Below are positions 1 through 32,298 of a stretch of 41,640 nucleotides of DNA, piece by piece. The notes under the pieces are model-generated. The model was not told the DNA's origin and did no database searches. It was given only the letters and a program-made list of their open reading frames with translations. This DNA comes from Minisyncoccota bacterium (GTDB lineage: Bacteria > Patescibacteriota > Minisyncoccia > Phycocordibacterales > UBA9973). Where the stretch lies: contig JAGOQI010000001.1 of NCBI GenBank assembly GCA_017991515.1, positions 1 to 41,640 on the forward strand. Direction: 5' to 3'. The position numbers and the translations under genes are program-made. The first letter of the stretch is position 1. The number at the start of each line of letters is the position of its first letter.

Positions 1-863
1 AGCCACTTTTCCATTTGGCCGTGGTAGTAGACGATCATGATGAAGGTGTGACGCATGTCTTACGAGCTGAAGAGCATATTGCCAACACTCCAAGGCAAAT
101 ACTGATACACGAAGCACTAGGCTTTGCTATACCACACTATGGACACTTACCACTTGTTCTGGCGCCGGACAAAACAAAGATGAGTAAAAGAAAGGGAGCG
201 ATACCGGTAGTTGACTATTTGGCGATGGGATATTTACCAGCGGCACTTTTGAATGCTATTTGTTTGTGTGGCTGGAATCCAGGAACAGAACAGGAGATTT
301 TTTCAAGAGAAGAGCTAGAAAATATTTTTGATTTGGACAAAGTTCAAAAGTCAGGAGCAGTTTTCGGTGAGGACAAACTCAATTGGTTTAACAGAGAATA
401 CATCAAGAAAATACCTAGTGATGACTTTTTAACACTAGCTTGGCCATATATGAAAGACTTTGTAGCAGATACTATGGAGAATTTTGCTATCTTACAAAAA
501 ATAGAATCAATACTTCGTGATCGCATCGAAAAGTTTTCAGATATCAAAACTTTGTTTGAAATAGGGGAGTTTGGATATTTTTTTGAAAAACCAAAAGTAG
601 ATGAAAAGATACTTGCTTGGAAAGATTCAACACTTGAAAAATCTCGTGAATATCTAAAAGAGATAATAACTCGTCTTGAAAAACTAGAAGAGTGGGATTA
701 TGAAAGTATTAAAGGTGCTATTTGGGACTATGCAGAGCAAGAAGGTAGAGGGCATGTCCTATGGCCTATGCGTGTCGCACTTTCTGGTCGCGAGAAATCT
801 CCAGACCCTTTTGAAATAGCGTCTATTTTAGGAAAAGAAGAGACATTAAAAAGATTAAAATAA
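1..863 (+). CDS. gltX: Glutamyl-tRNA synthetase, 3' part (5' end outside window)
   Basis: Class I aminoacyl-tRNA synthetase that charges tRNA with glutamate in the cytoplasm. The reading frame is open from the left edge (in frame from base 3) and upstream residues PLFHLAVVVDDHDEG already match the family, so the gene starts outside the window. Visible are the region that binds the tRNA acceptor end (VTHVLRAEEHIANTPRQ), the ATP-binding KMSKR signature (KTKMSKRKG, near base 180) and the C-terminal helical anticodon-binding domain (GYLPAALLNAICLCGWNPG onward). A TTG at base 15 could be mistaken for a start but lies inside conserved sequence. In organisms without GlnRS this enzyme can also charge tRNA-Gln; that cannot be decided from this fragment. 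Confidence 0.95.
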   Translation, partial: PLFHLAVVVDDHDEGVTHVLRAEEHIANTPRQILIHEALGFAIPHYGHLPLVLAPDKTKMSKRKGAIPVVDYLAMGYLPAALLNAICLCGWNPGTEQEIFSREELENIFDLDKVQKSGAVFGEDKLNWFNREYIKKIPSDDFLTLAWPYMKDFVADTMENFAILQKIESILRDRIEKFSDIKTLFEIGEFGYFFEKPKVDEKILAWKDSTLEKSREYLKEIITRLEKLEEWDYESIKGAIWDYAEQEGRGHVLWPMRVALSGREKSPDPFEIASILGKEETLKRLK

Positions 864-878
864 ATGTTATCATAAATT

Positions 879-1139
879 ATGAGCTTATTTTCAAACAATT
901 TAGAATCGCCATCAGAATCACAAGAAAATTCTGAAAATAAAGATGTAGAAATTACCATAGAAACTGCCGATGCTGAAATTAGTTTAATCATGCAAGAAGT
1001 TTATTCTATGGGTGCAAATGACCATGAGCTTGGTACCCTTAAAAAAATACAAGAAGATCTCAGGAGTGGAAAAATTTCTCCTAAAGAATCTGTAGAAAAA
1101 GCTGCTTCTGTAAGAGAAAATAAACAAGATTACCACTAA
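879..1139 (+). CDS. Small acidic hypothetical protein (86 aa)
   Basis: Not recognised. The protein is soluble and hydrophilic, with a Ser/Glu-rich N-terminus followed by a predicted helical part (residues 30-80, about EISLIMQEVYSMG and LKKIQEDLRSGKISPKES). It starts 15 nt after the gltX stop and its stop is followed one base later by the next ATG, so it is probably co-transcribed with its neighbours. There is no good Shine-Dalgarno sequence; a TATCAT box just upstream could give a nearly leaderless mRNA. Gene reality is supported by the tight packing rather than by homology. Confidence 0.65.
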   Translation: MSLFSNNLESPSESQENSENKDVEITIETADAEISLIMQEVYSMGANDHELGTLKKIQEDLRSGKISPKESVEKAASVRENKQDYH

Positions 1140-1140
1140 C

Positions 1141-1701
1141 ATGGACGTACTCGCACATACACTTTGGACGAATGCTGGAGCTAGAGCAGGGAATAAACTC
1201 GCTCAGAAAAAAGGTAGTAAGTTTCGCTTACATATAGGTTGGACGGCTTTCTGGGGAGTATTCCCAGACTTTTTTGCTTTTACTATTCCTTTTATTTTAG
1301 TTTTTTATAAAGTTATATTTGGTGGTGAGTCTTTCCTTACAATGAGACCAACTGGTAATGCTGTAGGTTTTGATTTAGCTTCATATTTATATCAGTTTAG
1401 TCACTCACTTGTAGTCTGGGCTTTTGTCTTTGCTGTTGTTTGGTATTTCTCGAAGCGTCCTCGTTATGAACTCCTCGGCTGGGCACTTCATATACTCATT
1501 GATATCCCGTCTCATGCTATTGGTTTTTATGCGACACCTTTTCTTTTCCCAATCTCAGAATACCGATTTCCATATGGAGTTTCTTGGGCAAATAAATACT
1601 ATATGATCATCAACTACAGTGCCTTGGCCTTTGTCTGGTCTCGCATTGCTATAAAGAAAATGAGAAGAAGCAAATTTACTGATGAAAAAACGAGAGTATA
1701 A
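1141..1701 (+). CDS. Integral membrane protein, YdjM/DUF457-like (putative membrane metal-dependent hydrolase)
   Basis: A 186-residue protein with about four membrane segments. It opens with MDVLAHTLWTNAGAR and contains a His-rich core motif LHILIDIPSH near residue 120, plus an earlier FPDFFAF motif after a tryptophan-rich helix. Membrane-embedded His/Asp motifs of this kind (H-x3-D, PDxF) are typical of the YdjM/DUF457 group of inner-membrane proteins annotated as metal-dependent hydrolases; the actual substrate is unknown. Its last 20 nt overlap the start of the DUF1905 gene, which suggests translational coupling. Function is inferred from motifs only. Confidence 0.7.
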   Translation: MDVLAHTLWTNAGARAGNKLAQKKGSKFRLHIGWTAFWGVFPDFFAFTIPFILVFYKVIFGGESFLTMRPTGNAVGFDLASYLYQFSHSLVVWAFVFAVVWYFSKRPRYELLGWALHILIDIPSHAIGFYATPFLFPISEYRFPYGVSWANKYYMIINYSALAFVWSRIAIKKMRRSKFTDEKTRV

Positions 1702-1984
1702 AATCAAATCAAAGGTTATGTTGTACCCAGGTATGTCTGGTTGGCACTTTGCTTATGTTCCAAAGAAGGAGTCGGCGGAAATAAAGAAAAATTTTGGTGA
1801 TATTGCTCGGGGTTGGGGATCATTTCCTGTAGAGGTGACAGTAGGGGGCAGTAAATGGAAAACATCTATCTTTCCAGATAAACAGTCCGGTACATATCTT
1901 TTGCCACTGAAAGCTTCTGTCCGTAAAGCCGAAGGTATACTCTCTGATGATGAAATAAAGATAGAGCTTAAGATCAAAATATAA
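1682..1984 (+). CDS. DUF1905 domain protein (100 aa)
   Basis: The sequence pattern SGWHFAYVPKKES, then GWGSFPVEVTVGGSKWKTSIFPD, then GTYLLPLKASVRKAEGI is that of the DUF1905 family, small beta-rich proteins of about 100 residues with unknown function, so the gene is full length. The ATG lies inside the 3' end of the upstream membrane-protein gene (20-nt overlap). The stop is followed one base later by the ATG of the glycosylase gene. The three genes therefore probably form one transcript. No catalytic residues are assigned for the family. Confidence 0.85.
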   Translation: MKKREYKIKSKVMLYPGMSGWHFAYVPKKESAEIKKNFGDIARGWGSFPVEVTVGGSKWKTSIFPDKQSGTYLLPLKASVRKAEGILSDDEIKIELKIKI

Positions 1985-1985
1985 T

Positions 1986-2522
1986 ATGGCAGAAAAATCA
2001 AAAATCAAGTCTTATTGTGAATATGTTAAAGATTTAGAAAGTGACAATGTTCACCGCATTTATCACGACACACAATACGGCTTTACTATAGACAATGACG
2101 ATGAACTTTTTGAAAGATTAATACTTGAGATCAATCAAGCAGGGCTCAGCTGGAACACTATCCTAAACAAACAGAAAAATTTCCAAAAAGCCTATCACAA
2201 GTTCAATATCAAAAAAGTCGCTTCCTATAAAACTCCTGACAAAAATAGATTACTAAAAGACGCAGGGATTATCAGGAATAGACTCAAAATAGAAGCTGCT
2301 ATTTACAATGCAGGTGTAATACTAAAACTGCAAAAAGAACACGGCTCGTTTAAAAAATGGCTAGACTCGCACAAAGGCAAAACTCGCGAAGAATGGACCA
2401 AGCTTTTCAAAACTACCTTTCACTTCACCGGCGGGGAAATAGTAAATGAATTCCTCATGAGTACTGGTTATTTGCCAGGAGCGCATGTTAAAGGGTGTAA
2501 GATAGGGAAGAAATTGAAATAA
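1986..2522 (+). CDS. tag: DNA-3-methyladenine glycosylase I
   Basis: Base-excision repair enzyme that removes 3-methyladenine from alkylated DNA. At 178 aa it is close to the usual family length (about 185). Family landmarks are visible: an N-terminal Cys (residue 11) and YHDTQYG, the LILEINQAGLSW helix carrying the conserved Glu of the base pocket, the helix-hairpin-helix region around LLKDAGIIRNRLKIEAAI, and the C-terminal GAHVKGC supplying the His and Cys that complete the Tag zinc site. It is the last gene of the gltX-side cluster and is followed by a hairpin. Confidence 0.93.
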   Translation: MAEKSKIKSYCEYVKDLESDNVHRIYHDTQYGFTIDNDDELFERLILEINQAGLSWNTILNKQKNFQKAYHKFNIKKVASYKTPDKNRLLKDAGIIRNRLKIEAAIYNAGVILKLQKEHGSFKKWLDSHKGKTREEWTKLFKTTFHFTGGEIVNEFLMSTGYLPGAHVKGCKIGKKLK

Positions 2523-2550
2523 AAATAGCGCCATTACTGACGCTATTGAG
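2516..2550 (-). terminator. Hairpin terminator for the minus-strand gene 2555-3004
   Basis: A 7-bp stem (AATAGCG 2524-2530 with CGCTATT 2541-2547, loop 10 nt) is followed on the minus strand by a T-rich run (TTTTTATTT). On the plus strand no T-run follows, so it mainly serves the minus-strand gene but may also slow transcripts leaving tag. Confidence 0.6.
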
Positions 2551-2554
2551 TACT

Positions 2555-3004
2555 TTAGTTCATTTGAGGATTGAAATCTTTTTCTGCTTCATCTTCTTTT
2601 TTGAAAGAATAAGTTCCAAAATTAAATTGGACATAAAAACAAATAATTATTTGAACAGGTTTTTCTCCTTGTACAACACCAATTAAAACCCAAGAATTTG
2701 GAATTAGTATGTTGTCAAAAAAATAATGATTAGACCTTGCAAGTCCATTTACTGTCTTTATATCTAGTCCACCTTCTGCAGCATGATTTTTTCCAAAAGA
2801 TTTTACACACAAGGAACCTGGACTGTGAACCTCTTTTATAATTAACTGCAATCTCTTTTTTCCGAGTAAAGGTTGTTCAGGGTAAGATACGGTGACATCC
2901 AGTGGAAGTTTATTTATTAGTCCTTTCTCTAGCATACTCAGTTGAGCTGTATCAAGAATAAAATCTATTTTACCAGAATTAGGTAATGGGCCAATTTTTG
3001 ACAT
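2555..3004 (-). CDS. Hypothetical protein (149 aa)
   Basis: Not recognised. The composition is of a soluble beta-rich protein with no membrane segment and no clear motif. Residues 30-75 (LPLDVTVSYPEQPLLGKKR onward) look like alternating strands, and the last 20 residues are charged. It stands alone on the minus strand between tag and the MazG-like gene, with its own consensus promoter (TTGACA/TACTAT) and terminator, which supports it as an expressed gene. Confidence 0.6.
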   Translation of the reverse strand: MSKIGPLPNSGKIDFILDTAQLSMLEKGLINKLPLDVTVSYPEQPLLGKKRLQLIIKEVHSPGSLCVKSFGKNHAAEGGLDIKTVNGLARSNHYFFDNILIPNSWVLIGVVQGEKPVQIIICFYVQFNFGTYSFKKEDEAEKDFNPQMN

Positions 3005-3034
3005 ATTAATTTATTTTAAGGTGAATTTAAATAT

Positions 3035-3062
3035 ATAGTACACTAAATATATAAAATGTCAA
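3035..3062 (-). promoter_or_regulatory. Sigma-70 type promoter for gene 2555-3004
   Basis: Read on the minus strand: perfect -35 TTGACA (3057-3062), 16-bp spacer, -10 TACTAT (3035-3040), about 30 nt before the ATG. Confidence 0.65.
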
Positions 3063-3063
3063 A

Positions 3064-3088
3064 CCTCCCCACCAACTTGGCGGAGAGG
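3064..3088. repeat. Near-perfect 25-nt inverted repeat (hairpin)
   Basis: Two CCTC...GAGG arms with an inner CCAA-C-TTGG pair symmetrically around base 3076 with only two mismatches. No T-run follows, so it is not a standard terminator. It is followed by TCAAATAGT, the same octamer that is tandemly repeated next to a hairpin in the retroelement at 28901-28940. Confidence 0.5.
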
Positions 3089-3139
3089 TCAAATAGTTGT
3101 TTAGGACTTGTCACGTACTAAACCTCGTTTTGTATGTGA

Positions 3140-3168
3140 TTGAAAAAACACCTAAAATGTGGGATAGT
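3140..3168 (+). promoter_or_regulatory. Promoter of the MazG/helicase island
   Basis: -35 TTGAAA (3140-3145), exactly 17-bp spacer, -10 GATAGT (3163-3168), then 8 nt to the ATG of the MazG-like gene. The mRNA would have almost no leader. Confidence 0.55.
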
Positions 3169-3176
3169 TCTTTCAT

Positions 3177-3524
3177 ATGAAGGATTCTGAGAAGTTTGAA
3201 GCACTAGTTGCTCGTATAAAGAAATTTTCTGAAGATCGAGATTGGTCTCAGTTTCATGATCCTAAAAATCTGGCTATTTCACTTAATCTTGAATCTGCCG
3301 AAGTGTTGGAACTTTATCAATGGACAAAAGATAATCAGCTTAAACCAGAGAGAGCAAATAAAATAAATGAAGAACTTGCTGATGTGTTTTATTGGTTAGT
3401 TTTACTTTCAAATTATTACAATATAGATCTCGTTGATTCTCTTGATAAAAAAATGGACCAAAATGAACAAAAGTATCCTATAGAAAAAGCAAAAGGAAAA
3501 TCAGATAAGTATAATGAACTTTAA
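3177..3524 (+). CDS. MazG-like nucleotide pyrophosphohydrolase
   Basis: All-alpha NTP pyrophosphohydrolase of the MazG-like/dCTPase group (RS21-C6 type, about 110 residues, so full length). It hydrolyses non-canonical or surplus (d)NTPs to NMP and pyrophosphate. Mg-binding acidic residues are visible in the two diagnostic helices: LNLESAEVLELYQW (E-x2-E pattern) and NEELADVFYWLVLLS (E-E-x2-D pattern). The C-terminal KYPIEKAKGKSDKYNEL is also family-typical. The stop is immediately followed by the ATG of the helicase gene (TAA-ATG), implying co-expression. MazG-like enzymes are often found in defence or nucleotide-pool-cleaning contexts; here that role is inferred from context. Confidence 0.88.
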   Translation: MKDSEKFEALVARIKKFSEDRDWSQFHDPKNLAISLNLESAEVLELYQWTKDNQLKPERANKINEELADVFYWLVLLSNYYNIDLVDSLDKKMDQNEQKYPIEKAKGKSDKYNEL

Positions 3525-5543
3525 ATGTCTGATATAAAAACCTTTCCTTTTAATAAAGAAGATTTTGATCAAATTAAAAATTATAATTTTGGTTTAAATT
3601 GGCCTGTAGTTTATCTTATTGAAGACGGAAAAGAAATTTATATTGGAGAAACAACCCGTCTACACGGAAGAAGTAGAGAACACTATGAAAACCCAGAAAG
3701 AGCAAAGTTGAAGAATATCCATATTATAACTGACGAGCAATATAATGTTTCAGCGACATTAGATATTGAATCTTGGCTAATACAGTATATTTCTGCAGAC
3801 GGTCAATTTATTATCCAAAATGGAAATGGTGGATTAAAAAATCATAAATATTATGATAAAGATAAATATAAAACCAAATTTGAGATTGCATGGAATTCTC
3901 TTATAGAAAAAAGATTGGTCAAAAATACCCTAGTAGACTTAAGAAATAGCGATCTATTTAAATATTCACCATATAAGTCTTTAACAGAGGATCAATTATT
4001 TGTCGCTATAAAAATATATGAGGATATAAAGAAAAACGAAATAAATACTTTTATAGTAAATGGTAAGCCCGGTACAGGTAAAACAATTCTTGCTACATAT
4101 TTGTTTAAATTTTTAAAAGAGCAAGAAGAAACAAAAAATATGAATATTGGCTTAGTTGTACCAATGGCGTCACTTCGAAAAACAATAGCTAAAGTTTTCT
4201 CAAAAATTAAAGGGTTAAAATCAAGTATGGTTATTGGACCAAATGATGTTGTAAAAGATCATTATGACTTACTAATCATTGACGAATCTCATAGATTACA
4301 AAGGCGGAAAGGTATTATGGGTTACGGTGCATATGATAATGTAAATCGCGGGCTTGGTTTAGGCAATGAAGGCACACAACTCGATTGGATAATGAAATCA
4401 TCTAAACACCAAATATTTTTCTATGATCAAAATCAAAGTGTAAAACCTGCCGACATTAGACCCGAGGATTTTAAGAAACTTAATTCTAAAAAATACGAAT
4501 TAGTTTCACAAATGCGAGTTGAAGCTGGTGAAGAATATATTAAATTCATCGAAGATTTTTTTGATTTAAAAACTCCACAAAATACTAATTTTGCAAATTA
4601 TGATTTTAAAATATTTGATAATGTTGAAAAAATGGTAACTGAGATCAAAGAAAAAGATAAAAAGCACAAACTTGCTCGTGTAGTTGCTGGTTATGCTTGG
4701 CCTTGGCATACAGCAAAGGGAACTCGTAATTACGATATAGAAATAGGTGGTCTAAAGCTTGTCTGGAATTCGACAGCCCAAGACTGGGTAAACTCACCAA
4801 ATGCTATAAATGAAGTTGGCTGTATTCATACTGTACAAGGTTATGATTTAAATTATGTTGGTGTAATTATTGGTCCCGAATTTTCATATGATATAGAAAA
4901 TAAAAAATTCAAAGTCGATCGTGAAAAGTACTTTGATACCAATGGCCGTAATGGTATTACTGACCCAAATGAATTAGAAAGATACATAATCAATATCTAT
5001 AAAACATTATTAACTCGTGGAATAAAGGGGACCTATATTTATATTGTCGATGAAAATTTAAGAAATTATTTAAATCAAATTGTAAACAAAAATTTGATCT
5101 CGATTCAAAAAGAAATCACCCAAAAATTTATAAAATCCCCATACATTGGCGAAATGATAGGTATTCCACTGGTTGGCTCAGCTCCATGCGGAGAGCCTTT
5201 GTTAGGAGAAAGTAACGTTGAAGACACAATAATGGTAGAAAAGAATAAAATTAAACCAGGCACAAATTATTTTATAGTACGAGCAAGTGGAGACTCGATG
5301 AATCTCGCCGGAATAAATGATGGAGACCTAGTTTTATGTAGATATTCAGAAAAAGGAGAAACAGGAGATAGGGTAGTTGCATTATTAGACGGTGAAAATG
5401 TAACAATTAAATATTATGATAAAAAAGATGGTCGTAGAATTTTATTACCTAAGAGTACGAATGCATCTCATCAACCAATAATTCCTCAAGAAGGGGATAT
5501 TGTTCAAGGTATTGTTCAGGAGGTTATCGAAATATTGGATTAA
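3525..5543 (+). CDS. GIY-YIG nuclease / DUF2075 helicase / S24 (LexA-UmuD-like) peptidase fusion
   Basis: A three-part 672-residue protein. Residues about 27-95 form a GIY-YIG-type nuclease domain (VVYLI, IYIGE, an Arg-rich helix, and a Glu in DIESWLIQYI). Residues about 150-515 are a DUF2075/superfamily 1-like helicase core: Walker A GKPGTGKT (180-187), Walker B LLIIDESH (249-256), the late motif CIHTVQGYDLNYVGVIIG, and TLLTRGIKGTYIYI. Residues about 545-672 are an S24 peptidase domain like LexA/UmuD C-termini: Cys-Gly cleavage site at 555-556 (APCGEP), nucleophile Ser591 (ASGDSM) and general-base Lys629 (NVTIKYY). The spacing (about 35 and 38 residues) matches LexA/UmuD. The likely job is a DNA-acting effector controlled by self-cleavage; that last point is inference. 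It is coupled to the MazG-like gene. Confidence 0.88.
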   Translation: MSDIKTFPFNKEDFDQIKNYNFGLNWPVVYLIEDGKEIYIGETTRLHGRSREHYENPERAKLKNIHIITDEQYNVSATLDIESWLIQYISADGQFIIQNGNGGLKNHKYYDKDKYKTKFEIAWNSLIEKRLVKNTLVDLRNSDLFKYSPYKSLTEDQLFVAIKIYEDIKKNEINTFIVNGKPGTGKTILATYLFKFLKEQEETKNMNIGLVVPMASLRKTIAKVFSKIKGLKSSMVIGPNDVVKDHYDLLIIDESHRLQRRKGIMGYGAYDNVNRGLGLGNEGTQLDWIMKSSKHQIFFYDQNQSVKPADIRPEDFKKLNSKKYELVSQMRVEAGEEYIKFIEDFFDLKTPQNTNFANYDFKIFDNVEKMVTEIKEKDKKHKLARVVAGYAWPWHTAKGTRNYDIEIGGLKLVWNSTAQDWVNSPNAINEVGCIHTVQGYDLNYVGVIIGPEFSYDIENKKFKVDREKYFDTNGRNGITDPNELERYIINIYKTLLTRGIKGTYIYIVDENLRNYLNQIVNKNLISIQKEITQKFIKSPYIGEMIGIPLVGSAPCGEPLLGESNVEDTIMVEKNKIKPGTNYFIVRASGDSMNLAGINDGDLVLCRYSEKGETGDRVVALLDGENVTIKYYDKKDGRRILLPKSTNASHQPIIPQEGDIVQGIVQEVIEILD

Positions 5544-26523: not shown

Positions 26524-26703
26524 GTGAACTAATTCTAACATTTGCGCGAACTTTTTTCCAACAGCAAATGTACTAATGCGGACTCGGTTTTGCGAAAGCA
26601 TCTTTCTGGGGGCAGGGATTTCGCAAAACCTCGGCTACTGATTTTTGAAATTCGGCGTGGTTTGGGGTTCGCCCGCAGGAGGGGTCTGGGGAGGAATGCG
26701 GGC
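26524..26703. repeat. Left arm of a 180-bp perfect inverted repeat flanking the retroelement
   Basis: Exactly the reverse complement of 30782-30961; every base was compared by eye and no mismatch was found. It is much richer in GC than its surroundings. It contains an internal 12-bp inverted repeat (GGTTTTGCGAAA/TTTCGCAAAACC) and an outward-facing start of a reading frame (ATG at 26601 on the minus strand). The two arms enclose 4078 bp holding the whole DGR. Confidence 0.95.
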
Positions 26704-27099
26704 TTCTAAGAAAAAACAGAACAAAACATTGTCTCTGTCATTTCTCTACTCTGTTATTATCCAAGTCTAAAGAGTAGCACCCTCGGCATCCGCCTCGGGC
26801 ATTTCCGCTATGGCTACTCGCGCCTAGGTGCCTATGTGTTCGCTTTGCTCACGCTTCTTGGGGAGAGGAAGTTTCCTCTCCCCGGGTCGGGCGATATACT
26901 CCGAGAGTACTCGGAGTACGCCCTCGCCATCTCCACTCTACGCTTTGCATATTGGAGTATGTGGTGTCGCTTTCGCTACTAAACTTTTGTGAGTTATATA
27001 ACTTCGGCGCTCATCCTTTAGCCATGGACGCTCATAGCGGAAATGCCCGAGGCGGAATACAAATGCGCTTGACCCACCCTCCCATTCGCACGCAAATAA
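26704..27099. other. Structured gene-free stretch behind the reverse transcriptase
   Basis: No credible gene. It contains a 23-bp perfect long-range inverted repeat (26790-26812 with 27033-27055). Inside are strong hairpins: GGGGAGAGGAA/TTCCTCTCCCC (26860-26870/26873-26883) and TACTCCGAG/CTCGGAGTA (26897-26905/26910-26918). Together this could fold as a closed RNA domain of about 266 nt. Whether it is an RNA gene, the 3' end of the RT transcript or debris of the mobile element is open. Confidence 0.5.
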
Positions 27100-28209: not shown

Positions 28210-28350
28210 CTCGGACACAACGGACGAAGTTGTTATTGTTCATATTGTCATTGTTGACATTGCCATCGTTGAAGTTGACGATCCAAGCATTGTTCGTGTT
28301 GTTCTCATAGGCAGTAGATGACCAGTAATTGTCCGACTGAGTAGCATTGT
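28210..28350 (-). repeat. DGR template repeat (TR)
   Basis: A 141-nt copy of the end of the target gene, between avd and the RT gene, on the same strand. Aligned with 28942-29082 (constant offset 732) it differs at about 20 positions; at every one the coding-strand TR has A and the VR has C, G or T. Read as protein it is extremely Asn-rich (ENNTNNAW, NVNNDNMNNNN) because AAC/AAT codons are the favoured template for adenine mutagenesis. It ends in the same GC-rich GTCCGTTGTGTCCGAG as the VR, the likely initiation-of-homing region. A frame from ATG 28384 with GGAGG upstream reads through it but is not considered a protein gene. Confidence 0.95.
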
Positions 28351-28433
28351 GAAGTTTCCGACTAACCGTGTCTTTCGTATACATAATCCTCCATCAAAAT
28401 GAAGGGCGGAAACTGAATTCCCAAACCCACACT

Positions 28434-28454
28434 AATGTATCCAGCGGATACATT
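28434..28454. repeat. Hairpin between avd and TR
   Basis: AATGTATCC (28434-28442), AGC loop, GGATACATT (28446-28454): a 9-bp perfect stem without a T-run. In the DGR transcript it would lie just 5' of the TR, where RNA structure is known to matter for cDNA priming in the Bordetella phage DGR; a role here is inferred. Confidence 0.5.
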
Positions 28455-28478
28455 ATTCCGGGGAACGAACAAAAAATA

Positions 28479-28838
28479 TCACTTTTTTGAAACGCTTTTC
28501 CTCCAACCCTCAGCCTGTTTTGTGAGCGCTACTGCTTTTTCTAATAGATAAAGATAACTTTTTTCTCCACCGAGTTGTTTGAGTTCGTTGGCGATACGGA
28601 GGTGAATAATAATTGACTCGGAGCACCAAACGAGCTTGCCGAGTAATTCCCTCCTTTCTTCCGTGCTTCTCGTATTATTGATTTCAAGAATCAATCGTAT
28701 GGCTTCAATATTTGCCTTAATAATTTCAGCCCCTAGTAGATACTTGTATTGTTTATTGAATTTTGGAGTTCGCTCATATAGTTCTCGAAGTAGGGTAAAA
28801 GCATCGGTATATATTGGTAGATGAGAATATTGAGCCAT
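28479..28838 (-). CDS. avd: DGR accessory variability determinant (Avd-like four-helix bundle)
   Basis: A 119-aa all-helical basic protein located between target and TR, the standard avd position. Helices: TDAFTLLRELYERTPKF, KYLLGAEIIKANIEAIRLILE, STEERRELLGKLVWCSESIII and KSYLYLLEKAVALTKQAEGWR. This is the pattern of the Avd/23S-intervening-sequence four-helix-bundle family. Avd forms a pentameric ring that binds the RT and the TR RNA and is required for retrohoming. Spacing to the VR is about 100 nt. Confidence 0.88.
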   Translation of the reverse strand: MAQYSHLPIYTDAFTLLRELYERTPKFNKQYKYLLGAEIIKANIEAIRLILEINNTRSTEERRELLGKLVWCSESIIIHLRIANELKQLGGEKSYLYLLEKAVALTKQAEGWRKSVSKK

Positions 28839-28869
28839 ATTTATTTTTTGAAATTATTTTTTATCGCGA

Positions 28870-28893
28870 GCTCCGCCTTAAAAAAGGCGGAGC
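28870..28893. repeat. GC-rich hairpin downstream of the VR (DGR cruciform-type)
   Basis: GCTCCGCCTT (28870-28879), AAAA loop, AAGGCGGAGC (28884-28893): a 10-bp perfect stem with a 4-nt loop. It is about 48 nt past the VR end and lacks a T-run. Bordetella-type DGRs have an inverted repeat of similar size with a 4-nt loop just downstream of the homing site that raises retrohoming efficiency. Confidence 0.65.
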
Positions 28894-28900
28894 AAATGAC

Positions 28901-28940
28901 CAAATAGTCAAATAGTCAAATAGTCAAATAGTCAAATTAT
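28901..28940. repeat. Tandem octamer repeat CAAATAGT between VR and hairpin
   Basis: Four exact copies of CAAATAGT (28901-28932) and a degenerate fifth (CAAATTAT, 28933-28940), which includes the target gene stop codon region. It separates the VR end from the hairpin. Slippage would change that distance. Confidence 0.85.
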
Positions 28941-29815
28941 CCTCGGACACAACGGACGAAGTAGTTAGAGTTCATAGTGACACTGTAGACACTGCCATCG
29001 CTGAAGTGGACGAGCCAAGCATTGTTCGCGGAGTTCTCATAGGCAGTAGAAGACCAGTAAAAGCCCGACTGAGTAGCAGGGAAATATGTAGGGTCTATTG
29101 CAGGATTAACTCGACCATAATCCACAATAGACATGAGCTCTTTGACATTCGGCAAACGCCAGTCGCTGTGAGTGGCGAGACTTAAGCTATCGCAATAGTT
29201 GATAGCTGGTTGATGGGTTATACCGAGATCACCATCACCATCATCAAAAAGTACTCCGATGGCACTTCCACCAGAACAGTCTAATCCAGTCTGCCCATCA
29301 CTACACTTCTGCCACATCAGACCTGTGGCACTGTCTGTTATAGTAGCATCTCCATTATCAACATAGCCGTGAGCCAGACCTTTTTGTGTTTCTCCATCTT
29401 GGGCTGTAGCAGTACATGGGATTTGTGAAGAACTTCCGTACCCACCGCTGAATGCATTACAATGAGTTTGCCCCGTCTTTGGTAGTCCAGCCTGTCCTGC
29501 CGAAGCACTGCCAGCTACGCCCATATACGTTGTGCCTGTTAATATTTTAGTGGCATCTAAAGTCGGAATGCTTTCATAAATCTGCTTGAGGGTGTGAAAT
29601 GTCGCAGATACTGAACCAGGCGTAGTAAACGAAGCTGAGCTTTCGGCTTGGCTTGTCGTATTGTCGATGAGCCTATTGTAAATGCCATCGAGTGTGTACA
29701 TCGTGCTTGCCGGAACTCCAGGCGGAGTAAGCGAACCAGCAAATGTCGTGCGGACAAATGCCCCGATGATAAATGCGATGAGAACGTAGGAACTGATTTG
29801 TAAGAATTTTTTCAT
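28937..29815 (-). CDS. DGR target: secreted DUF1566 (C-type-lectin-like) variable protein
   Basis: A surface or secreted binding protein whose C-terminal ligand loop is diversified by the DGR. An N-terminal signal/anchor helix (FLQISSYVLIAFIIGAFV) and a Ser/Thr/Gly-rich stalk (about 25-130) precede a DUF1566/FGE-like lectin domain (about 150-292) with DNGDATITDSATGLMWQKC and HSDWRLPNVKELMSIVDYG. The VR forms the last 47 residues. Cys pairs (C120 region, QKCSDG, LDCSGG, NYCDS, RCVRG) suggest disulphides outside the cell. It starts 13 nt after the wall-binding protein gene, in the same operon. The base composition is visibly richer in GC than that of the RT and avd genes, a sign of separate origin. 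Confidence 0.93.
   Translation of the reverse strand: MKKFLQISSYVLIAFIIGAFVRTTFAGSLTPPGVPASTMYTLDGIYNRLIDNTTSQAESSASFTTPGSVSATFHTLKQIYESIPTLDATKILTGTTYMGVAGSASAGQAGLPKTGQTHCNAFSGGYGSSSQIPCTATAQDGETQKGLAHGYVDNGDATITDSATGLMWQKCSDGQTGLDCSGGSAIGVLFDDGDGDLGITHQPAINYCDSLSLATHSDWRLPNVKELMSIVDYGRVNPAIDPTYFPATQSGFYWSSTAYENSANNAWLVHFSDGSVYSVTMNSNYFVRCVRG
28942..29082 (-). repeat. DGR variable repeat (VR)
   Basis: Last 141 nt before the target stop, coding residues about 245-291. About 15 codons differ from the TR reading, nearly all Asn in the TR frame (for example N to Y, S, H, T, P or F). Invariant blocks such as YWSSTAYEN and FVRCVR are kept as scaffold. Confidence 0.95.
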
Positions 29816-29828
29816 AATAATAATGTTG

Positions 29829-30707
29829 TTATTTTAATAATGCACCCCTAGTGATGGGACCGACGATACCATCTATTTTTAAGCTATTGGCTTTTTGAAA
29901 TATGATGACGGCTTGATATGTCTTTGGGCCGAATATGCCGTCGGGGACTAATTGAGGAACTAAGGTTGGAATTTTTGTGTTCAGGCAGGTTTGTAGAGCT
30001 TTGACATTTACATTGTTCATGCGAGGGACTGTCAGCTTGAGTAGTTGGGTAAAGTTGAGGGTACAGGACACAGGAGTTGGTGGAGTTGTCGGAAGTGTTG
30101 CAATCACGATAGTCCCTTCGCTTCCAGTCAGGTACGATCCTTTGCAGTCTGGGTCAGCCAAATCAATCTTTCCATCGTGGTCGTCATCAATGCCATTGTT
30201 GCACTGAGTAATTATTCTTCCGCCGCCACTACTATGCCCACCACTTGAAACTACTGGTGGTCGCCATGATGTTGTGACTTTATAGTCGACAGTACCACAT
30301 GAACTTGTATTGTCACAGTTAAGTGATACCCAGCCTATATTTGGACTATATGCGTAGCCAGAAAATATTCCGGTACTGGTGTTGATAGTGACTTGGGAGA
30401 AATCAATGTAGCCGGTGTTCTCGCTCCAGGCATAGCCCGAAAGCGTGCCGGAAGAGTTCGTTACTTTGTAATCGACAGTTCCGCACGAACTAGTGTTGGA
30501 ACAGTTGAGCGATACCCAACCGATATTTGAACTGTAGGCGTAACCCGCGAGCGCGTCATTTGCCACCGTCACTTGCGAGAAGTCTATCCAGGCCGTATTC
30601 TCACTCCACGCATAACCGGAAGTAGAATCTGCAAAAGCTACTTTTACAGCAAAAAACATTATTGATAATATAAATAAACCGAAAACAAAAATGGGTTTTA
30701 GTCTCAT
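29829..30707 (-). CDS. Secreted protein with repeats, Asp-rich calcium-type loop and peptidoglycan-binding domain
   Basis: A 292-aa exported protein upstream of the DGR target in the same operon. A signal peptide (FVFGLFILSIMFFAVKVAFA) is followed by two tandem repeats of about 57 residues. Each begins GYAWSENT, continues IDFSQVT and ends GYAYS.NIGWVSLNC...SCGTVDYKVT. Then come a Gly/Ser linker, an Asp-rich loop CNNGIDDDHDGKIDLADPDC (calcium-type) and a C-terminal PGB_1 peptidoglycan-binding domain (VKALQTCLN, DGIFGPKTYQAVIIFQKANS, DGIVGPITRGALL). It may anchor or present the variable protein at the cell wall; that is inferred from operon context. The start at 30707 is supported by a TATAAT exactly 6 nt upstream. 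Confidence 0.88.
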   Translation of the reverse strand: MRLKPIFVFGLFILSIMFFAVKVAFADSTSGYAWSENTAWIDFSQVTVANDALAGYAYSSNIGWVSLNCSNTSSCGTVDYKVTNSSGTLSGYAWSENTGYIDFSQVTINTSTGIFSGYAYSPNIGWVSLNCDNTSSCGTVDYKVTTSWRPPVVSSGGHSSGGGRIITQCNNGIDDDHDGKIDLADPDCKGSYLTGSEGTIVIATLPTTPPTPVSCTLNFTQLLKLTVPRMNNVNVKALQTCLNTKIPTLVPQLVPDGIFGPKTYQAVIIFQKANSLKIDGIVGPITRGALLK

Positions 30708-30713
30708 TCCATT

Positions 30714-30742
30714 ATTATACCCCCCCCCGACTGGTTTTCCAA
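30714..30742 (-). promoter_or_regulatory. Promoter of the DGR surface operon with poly-G spacer
   Basis: Minus strand: -35 TTGGAA (30737-30742), 17-bp spacer, -10 TATAAT (30714-30719). The 9 bp of the spacer touching the -10 are all G (30720-30728). Gain or loss of one G would change the spacer from its optimal length. The -10 is 6 nt from the ATG. Confidence 0.75.
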
Positions 30743-30781
30743 GCATTTAGAGTGTTTATAACTAGTCTCATTTAAAACCCC

Positions 30782-30961
30782 GCCCGCATTCCTCCCCAGA
30801 CCCCTCCTGCGGGCGAACCCCAAACCACGCCGAATTTCAAAAATCAGTAGCCGAGGTTTTGCGAAATCCCTGCCCCCAGAAAGATGCTTTCGCAAAACCG
30901 AGTCCGCATTAGTACATTTGCTGTTGGAAAAAAGTTCGCGCAAATGTTAGAATTAGTTCAC
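30782..30961. repeat. Right arm of the 180-bp perfect inverted repeat
   Basis: Partner of 26524-26703. It includes the inner 12-bp inverted repeat GGTTTTGCGAAA (30855-30866) / TTTCGCAAAACC (30888-30899). From ATG 30884 an outward frame of 29 codons begins with the same 26 residues (MLSQNRVRIS...) as the left arm and then stops at 30971-30973. Confidence 0.95.
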
Positions 30962-30993: not shown

Positions 30994-31284
30994 CGCGTTG
31001 TGACCCTAAGCAAGACAACTGCTTGTCTTGTGTCGGGAATCGAACAACGGAAGCATATTTTTTCAGCAGGAAAAATAGCTGAGTTGGTGCCCAGACTTTT
31101 CCAAGTGACTGACGAGGAAAAAGTCGAGGGCGATCCGTGCAACTTCCCCGTAGGGTCACCATCTGAGAATTTTAATTTTTTCTAAATAGACCTTATTTAT
31201 CAAGGCACCAGCTTTCAAAAAAGAGGTAAAAATATCAAAATTAGCCATGACCCTACAGGGAATCGAACCACTAGTACATCGTGG

Positions 31285-31296: not shown

Positions 31297-32298
31297 ATGA
31301 TACCGAATACATTTATAGTAGAGCTAAAAAGAATTAAGGATGCCATTTTAAGTGATAATGATGAATTGATAGCTTTTAAGAAGTATGTTAAGGATATTTC
31401 TGCTATTTCTCCAGCAATGTTTTCAAATCAAAATTGGCCTAAAACATGGCGACAGGAAGTATATAGTTTTGGAGAAGTGTTTGAAAAGAAAGATGCTGGC
31501 CCATATATCTATGAAGCTCGATTTTATACTGAGCAGTCAACAATGAATGAAATTGTATCGTTTATTTATTCTGAAATAATTTGGAACTATTTTGAAAGAG
31601 CGGGAGAATACAATCGAGAGATACTTAAAAAACTTATCGATAGCTTCCCTCACAATCCTGAATTTCACCATACCTATGGCCATTTTTTGAATGAAAATAA
31701 AAATCGTGAAAAGGCTCTTTTTGAATATCAGAGAGCAATAAATATAGATCCTGTAAATATAACTTTTATAAGTAGCTATTATGCTTGTTTAAAAGATTTT
31801 TTTGAAGACTTAATAAATAAACACAGTCTTGATCAAGCAGAACAGTTATTAGATAAAACCTTTTCATATCTTAAAGAGAAGAAAATTCTTGATATACCTA
31901 GAACAGGTAGAGATATTCAAGCTAGGTTAGCTTCGTTAAAAGATAGAATTACTGACCATAAGGCAATCGATAAGCAAGTAATTTATTTCCAAAAGGAAAT
32001 TGAAAATACAATAAGAGTTGAGCAAAGAAGACTAATAGAGACATTGGGAATTTTTTCCGCAATCCTTGCTTTTATCATCACAAATGTATCGATTGGGTTG
32101 TCTAATCTAGGAGTAAAAGAGATGATGTTTTTAATGTTTGGAATGGCCTTAGTTTTACTTATATTCGCCGTAGCAATTTCTTATTTATTCGGTCCAAAAC
32201 TTCGTCATAAGCCAAAATTTTATCATTTTAAGCGCCTTAAATTTTGGGTTTTGTTAGCTATAGTGGTTGCTTTGTTTTTATTATACAAACTAGGATAG
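31297..32298 (+). CDS. TPR-like protein with three C-terminal membrane helices (333 aa)
   Basis: A cytoplasmic helical N-terminal part (about 1-230) contains at least one TPR-like pair (NPEFHHTYGHFLNENKNREKALFEYQRAINIDPVN at about 115-150). Two or three membrane helices follow (about 250-272, 278-305 and 315-332). Helical repeat plus membrane anchor suggests a scaffolding or sensing role. The name of the family is not recognised. It is the first gene right of the retroelement and has its own extended -10. Confidence 0.7.
   Translation: MIPNTFIVELKRIKDAILSDNDELIAFKKYVKDISAISPAMFSNQNWPKTWRQEVYSFGEVFEKKDAGPYIYEARFYTEQSTMNEIVSFIYSEIIWNYFERAGEYNREILKKLIDSFPHNPEFHHTYGHFLNENKNREKALFEYQRAINIDPVNITFISSYYACLKDFFEDLINKHSLDQAEQLLDKTFSYLKEKKILDIPRTGRDIQARLASLKDRITDHKAIDKQVIYFQKEIENTIRVEQRRLIETLGIFSAILAFIITNVSIGLSNLGVKEMMFLMFGMALVLLIFAVAISYLFGPKLRHKPKFYHFKRLKFWVLLAIVVALFLLYKLG

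What the first reader, a model, noticed from the sequence alone, without database searches (positions are those of the whole stretch)
28210..29082. TR/VR differences are confined to template adenines
TR 28210-28350 and VR 28942-29082 align without gaps at a constant offset of 732. About 20 positions differ, and at each the plus strand has T in the TR (A on the coding strand) and A, C or G in the VR. Outside those positions the 141 nt are identical. About 15 codons change, mostly Asn in the TR reading. Random divergence would not be confined to one base. The clean pattern implies recent activity.
Basis: seen in the sequence. Interest (0 to 1): 0.8.

Follow-up and report, generated by a model that had tools for sequence, protein, structure and literature searches.

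The report
Self-mutating gene cassette between inverted repeats
A tiny bacterium carries a complete diversity-generating retroelement, a machine that rewrites one surface-protein gene only at template adenines, and here the whole machine sits between two perfect 180-base inverted repeats next to a conserved, apparently undescribed structured RNA, which suggests how such machines are carried between genomes.

Summary
TR 28210-28350 and VR 28942-29082 differ at 21 positions, all 21 at template adenines (47 of 141 bases; p = 2e-12). It is a diversity-generating retroelement (DGR) in a 570-kb Patescibacteria-type genome. An Avd protein, a DGR-type reverse transcriptase and a secreted Lcl_C-domain target are all intact. 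Against its nearest relative (RT 70% identical), the TR differs at 15 non-adenine positions and both VRs follow their own TR at all 15, while VRs differ at half of the shared adenines. So copying from TR to VR continued after the lineages split. Current activity was not tested. This part is a new member of a known kind. The unexpected part is the carrier. The DGR lies inside a perfect 180-nt inverted repeat (26524-26703/30782-30961) with a conserved structured RNA (26792-27053, minus; 17 compensating pairs, no Rfam family). Homologous arm pairs bound other cargos in related genomes. Intact copies abut a large serine recombinase at a tRNA or tmRNA 3' end. The window has only the cargo half, with no cognate recombinase in its assembly. 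I read it as a stranded cargo module of a serine-recombinase cassette family; mobility is inferred, not shown.

The parts
28210..28350 (-). Template repeat (TR); core 28210-28346
   Evidence: Ungapped alignment to the VR, all 21 mismatches at coding-strand A
28942..29082 (-). Variable repeat (VR), 3' end of the target gene
   Evidence: only VR found in the own genome
27100..28179 (-). DGR-type reverse transcriptase (359 aa from ATG 28179; upstream GTG at 28218 overlaps the TR end)
   Evidence: RVT_1 3e-18; phrog_1423 Reverse transcriptase 5e-96; best PDB match 8ub7 at 1e-41; IGNLTSQ and YVDD motifs
28479..28838 (-). Avd-type accessory protein, 119 aa
   Evidence: phrog_3206 'Avd protein of DGR' 1e-14; bAvd 3e-7, below the curated cut-off
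28937..29815 (-). Target gene, 292 aa, N-terminal hydrophobic segment and C-terminal Lcl_C domain holding the VR
   Evidence: Lcl_C 1e-36 at residues 158-291
29829..30746 (-). Secreted-type protein with C-terminal peptidoglycan-binding domain, companion of the target in L053 and L054 too
   Evidence: PG_binding_1 3e-11; 80% identical in L053
26524..26703 (+). Left arm (B) of perfect 180-nt inverted repeat; outer end GTGAACTAATTCTAACATTTGCGCGAACTT
   Evidence: the repeat finder I1; homologs in 109 of 395 related genomes
30782..30961 (-). Right arm (rcB) of the inverted repeat
   Evidence: 100% complementary to the left arm over 180 nt
26792..27053 (-). Conserved structured RNA, about 262 nt, 89 nt inside the left arm, 3' end towards the arm
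   Evidence: z = -9.0; 68 pairs, 17 with compensating changes, 0/500 shuffles; 14 loci; no Rfam family
28868..28891 (-). 10-bp GC-rich stem with TTTT loop, 48 nt after the VR; candidate target hairpin or terminator
   Evidence: loop is not the GRNA of phage DGRs (PMC3240598)
28901..28937 (.). 8-nt tandem repeat (CAAATAGT x4.6) between VR end and hairpin
   Evidence: TRF

Best explanation
This is a diversity-generating retroelement. The RT copies TR-containing RNA into cDNA, misincorporates opposite template adenines, and the cDNA replaces the VR at the 3' end of the Lcl_C target gene while the TR is kept, so the protein's C-terminal binding face is re-drawn. Shown here: adenine-only differences, intact RT, Avd and target frames, and VRs that follow their own TR between lineages. 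Inferred: the biochemical steps, taken from studied DGRs, and the target's role as a surface binder. The DGR is the cargo of a module bounded by long inverted repeats that also carries a conserved structured RNA. In related genomes such modules abut a large serine recombinase set at a tRNA 3' end (tRNA | rcA - recombinase - A | B - cargo - rcB | flank). The three junctions share a short core, so A|B looks like a retained attP. The window holds only B - DGR - rcB, most simply a cargo half separated from its recombinase. Mobilisation is inferred, not shown. The confidence given is for the DGR; for the carrier reading it is about 0.65.
For: Alignment and test. Protein families. 481 of 515 mismatches at A over 30 relatives' TR/VR pairs. 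15 of 15 non-A TR differences mirrored by the own VR, window against L046. Perfect 180-nt IR; arm homologs in 109 of 395 genomes; 21 arm pairs in the fetched loci, 14 of them at least 99% identical internally, while arms of different genomes are only about 75-87% identical to the window's. Eight loci where an A-IR abuts a B-IR with 3-10 nt shared. 17 of 22 recombinase matches have a convergent tRNA/tmRNA 3' end. Junction cores. Recombinase domains Resolvase + Recombinase + Zn_ribbon_recom. DGR cargo with the same companion genes in L053 (same genus) and L054 (same order).
Against: Activity now is not tested (no reads). The hairpin after the VR has a TTTT loop at +48 and is not conserved in relatives. 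No cognate recombinase in the window's assembly: its only resolvase match is a different one on C6, and no L053-type match. Most related DGRs show no long IR around them, some because contigs are short. The window's flanks are not tRNA ends, and no empty site was found.
Confidence: 0.93

Rival explanations
1. Ordinary duplicated gene fragment that has diverged by point mutation.
For: TR and VR are a direct repeat in one locus.
Against: 21 of 21 mismatches at A (p = 2e-12); 15 of 15 concerted non-A changes against L046; an adjacent RT and Avd.
Confidence: 0.01
2. A DGR that worked once but is now dead in this lineage.
For: No read data; the DGR clade restricted to Patescibacteria shows lower-than-average population diversity in a metagenome survey (PMC8144416).
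Against: RT, Avd and target frames are intact with catalytic motifs. No mismatch at any of 94 non-A sites, so little time has passed since the last homing.
Confidence: 0.15
3. The 180-nt inverted repeat is a metagenome assembly artefact or a chance intergenic repeat unrelated to the DGR.
For: The genome is a draft in 18 contigs; arms lie at contig ends in several genomes.
Against: Homologous arms bound cargo in many independent assemblies, with the same spacing to the structured RNA (81-201 nt) and to tRNA-sited recombinases.
Confidence: 0.06
4. The inverted repeat is an invertible switch that flips the DGR within its site rather than the border of a mobile cassette.
For: Arms are 100% identical within the window, as recombination between arms would keep them.
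Against: Cargo differs between sites and genomes (restriction, wall, DGR genes). Arms sit next to tRNA-targeted recombinases, the layout of integrating elements.
Confidence: 0.2

Closest known systems
Diversity-generating retroelements of Patescibacteria/CPR (DGR clade 2 of Roux et al. 2021, PMC8144416)
   Same: Cell-encoded DGR in a Patescibacteria-type genome, adenine-biased TR/VR, Avd, VR at the 3' end of the target
   Different: Enclosed in a perfect 180-nt inverted repeat with a structured RNA; the target has a recognisable Lcl_C domain and a peptidoglycan-binding companion. Clade membership itself was not tested
Bordetella phage BPP-1 DGR (Mtd/Avd/bRT)
   Same: Target, Avd, TR, RT order; RT best match is PDB 8ub7 (that this entry is the BPP-1 DGR complex is from memory)
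   Different: Chromosomal; no GRNA-loop hairpin 4-34 bp after the VR (PMC3240598)
Large serine recombinase integrative elements
   Same: Related loci have the Resolvase/Recombinase/Zn_ribbon architecture and att-like junctions with a short shared core
   Different: Insertion at tRNA/tmRNA 3' ends; element ends and an internal site form two abutting long inverted repeats that separate the recombinase from the cargo; the window copy has no recombinase
Tycheposons (tRNA-targeting cargo elements of Prochlorococcus; from memory)
   Same: Small accessory-gene cargo next to tRNA genes
   Different: As recalled, those use tyrosine recombinases; here serine recombinases and long inverted repeats

Membership tests
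Diversity-generating retroelement | TR/VR pair with mismatches at template adenines | tested here: met
   21/21 at A, p = 2e-12
Diversity-generating retroelement | Adjacent DGR-type RT (IGxxxSQ and YxDD motifs) | tested here: met
   IGNLTSQ, YVDD; phrog_1423 5e-96; PDB 8ub7 1e-41
Diversity-generating retroelement | Accessory protein (Avd or equivalent) | tested here: met
   phrog_3206 Avd 1e-14; Pfam and NCBIfam models below cut-off
Diversity-generating retroelement | VR at the 3' end of a target gene with a C-type-lectin-like domain | tested here: inconclusive
   VR is the last 47 codons of the target, inside Lcl_C; fold not confirmed, AlphaFold model pLDDT 31
Diversity-generating retroelement | TR-to-VR transfer (VR follows its TR) | tested here: met
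   15/15 non-A differences concerted against L046
Diversity-generating retroelement | Hairpin/cruciform after the VR with a GRNA loop (phage DGRs; not defining for all DGRs) | tested here: not met
   10-bp stem with TTTT loop at +48; no conserved hairpin in relatives. Described for phage-type DGRs, so it does not exclude membership
Diversity-generating retroelement | Active mutagenic homing | not testable with these tools
   Needs reads or an assay
Large serine recombinase integrative element | Recombinase encoded in cis | tested here: not met
   None in the window; the only assembly resolvase is on C6. Met in relatives L053 and L054. The window copy is therefore not filed as such an element
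Large serine recombinase integrative element | att junctions sharing a short core | tested here: inconclusive
   Both window ends have the same outer arm sequence, but flanks are not recognisable attB. Clear in relatives
Large serine recombinase integrative element | Empty site in a close relative | tested here: inconclusive
   No syntenic empty site in the genus

The most novel reading that the evidence does not exclude
Patescibacteria host an undescribed family of mobile cassettes in which a tRNA-targeting large serine recombinase and a cargo module are each bounded by long, near-perfect inverted repeats around a retained attP, with a conserved structured RNA of about 260 nt just inside a cargo arm. 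Excised, such an element would be a circle with two inverted att copies separating a recombinase arc from a cargo arc. DGRs have entered it more than once (two RT clades in L053), giving a route by which DGRs move between genomes.
Probability: 0.55. Interest if true: 0.8.

Novelty: new variant of a known kind. Interest (0 to 1): 0.58.

Why it matters
The DGR itself adds a clean Patescibacteria example with between-lineage evidence of homing. The carrier matters more. DGRs have been supposed to spread on mobile elements (PMC8144416), and this gives a concrete candidate vehicle with defined ends, a recombinase in relatives and a structured RNA, all testable. If real, the cassette family would also be a general gene-exchange system of bacteria with very small genomes, moving restriction systems, cell-wall enzymes and DGRs between tRNA sites.

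Tried and rejected
Target fold: AlphaFold with a two-sequence alignment gave pLDDT 31, unusable. Phage-type VR hairpin: not conserved. Rfam: no family for the RNA, only a chance miRNA match at E 9. tRNA in the window: none. Empty site: the right-flank gene 31297-32298 is absent from the genus, and the trxB-ftsZ neighbourhood in nine relatives gave no clean empty site. RNA core in viral contigs, phages and plasmids: no match. Viral contigs with RT relatives: two, 33-34% identical, also with adenine-biased TR/VR, no long IR. Seven literature searches found no description of the inverted-repeat cassette or of a DGR in it; subscription papers are mostly not held.

Full report
1. Check of the observation. 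The two intervals align without gaps at offset 732, with 21 mismatches. On the coding (minus) strand every one is a template A replaced by another base: A>T 9, A>C 7, A>G 5. The TR has 47 A in 141 bases, so 21 of 21 has probability 2e-12. The repeat's 3' boundary (coding sense) is sharp at 28210. Its 5' edge is ragged, and the conservative core 28210-28346 gives 18 of 18. Sixteen codons and fifteen residues change; eleven of the changed codons are Asn in the TR reading. The own genome (570 kb, 18 contigs, 98% complete) has one RVT_1 match and one VR.

2. What it is. On the minus strand the order is: peptidoglycan-binding protein, target with the VR, Avd, TR, RT. The RT matches the PHROG reverse transcriptase family at 5e-96 and PDB 8ub7 at 1e-41, and reads IGNLTSQ and YVDD. 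The 119-aa protein matches the PHROG 'Avd protein of DGR' at 1e-14. The target's C-terminus is Lcl_C at 1e-36, and the VR is its end. This is a diversity-generating retroelement.

3. Does the VR follow its TR? In L046 (a Patescibacteria MAG contig; RT 70% identical) the TR differs from the window's at 15 positions where neither has A, and at all 15 each VR carries its own TR's base. At the 36 adenines the two TRs share, the VRs differ at 18. That is the pattern expected if cDNA from the TR has kept replacing the VR after the lineages separated. Across 30 TR/VR pairs in relatives, 481 of 515 mismatches are at A, while A makes up 28% of TR bases. That set was filtered for at least 70% A-mismatches, so it describes the pattern rather than testing it. 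Activity today is untested.

4. The surroundings. The whole DGR lies between arms of a perfect 180-nt inverted repeat, 26524-26703 and 30782-30961. The arm has homologs in 109 of 395 related genomes. In L053 (same genus) a 186-nt perfect pair encloses two DGRs whose RTs belong to different clades. In L054 (same order) a 91% pair of about 210 nt encloses one. Both stand beside a large serine recombinase whose gene end overlaps a tRNA-Thr 3' end. Forty further loci chosen for arm homology show the same plan: 21 arm pairs in all, 14 at least 99% identical internally. In eight loci a second inverted repeat around the recombinase abuts the cargo repeat with 3-10 shared bases. For 17 of 22 recombinase matches a tRNA or tmRNA faces the gene end. 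The three junctions read tRNA|rcA, A|B and rcB|flank. Since the outer two are what integration of A|B into a tRNA end would give, A|B is most simply a retained attP. Cargo includes Mrr, Eco57I-type and N6/N4 methylase genes, a helicase-nuclease, D-Ala-D-Ala ligase, LD-carboxypeptidase, HIT and DHH proteins.

5. The window copy. It has B ends on both sides and no A arm or recombinase. Its outer 38 nt match the arms of L185 (92%), which has a different recombinase subgroup (45% identical to L053's). The right flank, 31009-31134, resembles a repeat that lies 22-39 nt downstream of tRNA-Pro, tRNA-Leu and tRNA-His genes in the same genome, as expected of a tRNA-downstream flank. A cargo half split off by recombination between the retained attP and a second tRNA end would look like this. 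That step is inference.

6. A structured RNA. Between the left arm and the RT, 26792-27053 (minus) folds at -133 kcal/mol for the stretch tested (z = -9.0). In ten aligned loci 96.7% of cells pair, 17 of 68 pairs show compensating changes (0 of 500 shuffles), and sliding the partners drops pairing to 40-49%. It occurs in 14 independent loci, each 81-201 nt inside an arm (in L054 the arm is not homologous to the window's), with its 3' end towards the arm. No Rfam family matches. The loci were found through arm or RT homology, so copies elsewhere are not excluded.

7. Origin of the association. In an RT tree the DGRs seen inside such arms (window, both RTs of L053, L054) do not form one clade: the nearest relatives of the window and of L054 (L046, L055) show no arm homologous to the window's in the contigs held, though both contigs are short on one side. 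DGRs therefore seem to have entered or left the carrier more than once; this is inference from few loci.

8. Verdict. The finding is right, and the DGR is a new member of a known kind. The carrier is the reason for interest: an apparently undescribed inverted-repeat cassette family linked to serine recombinases and to a new structured RNA. Its mobility and the role of the RNA are unproven.

Noticed in passing
window 26792-27053 (-): Strongly conserved, covarying structured RNA without an Rfam family, just inside one arm of the cassette; function unknown.
   Followed up: yes
L075 (own genome C1) 1-127: Contig C1 begins with 127 nt identical to the A|B junction and B arm of L053, followed by a tRNA-Thr-like remnant and the same downstream gene family, so this genome probably holds a second, unassembled cassette of the L053 type.
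   Followed up: partly
L053 5031-12232: One cassette holds two DGRs with RTs of different clades (about 37% identical), each with its own adenine-only or adenine-biased TR/VR pair.
   Followed up: partly
L218 (G006:C12) 117-4311: Next to the g34502-trxB-ftsZ genes, G006 carries methylase and DUF5655 genes ending in a 42-nt piece 88% identical to the window's outer arm: other cargo in the same neighbourhood.
   Followed up: partly
window 31009-31134: tRNA-downstream repeat with a T-arm-like complement (GGGAATCGAAC), also 22-39 nt after tRNA-Pro, tRNA-Leu and tRNA-His on C13 and C6; nature unknown.
   Followed up: partly
window 26704-27076 vs L053 11671-12045: The RNA-bearing spacer lies on the RT side of the DGR in the window but on the far side in L053, so cargo and spacer have been rearranged relative to each other.
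   Followed up: no
L195 17435-17985: A cassette recombinase set at the 3' end of a tmRNA gene instead of a tRNA.
   Followed up: no
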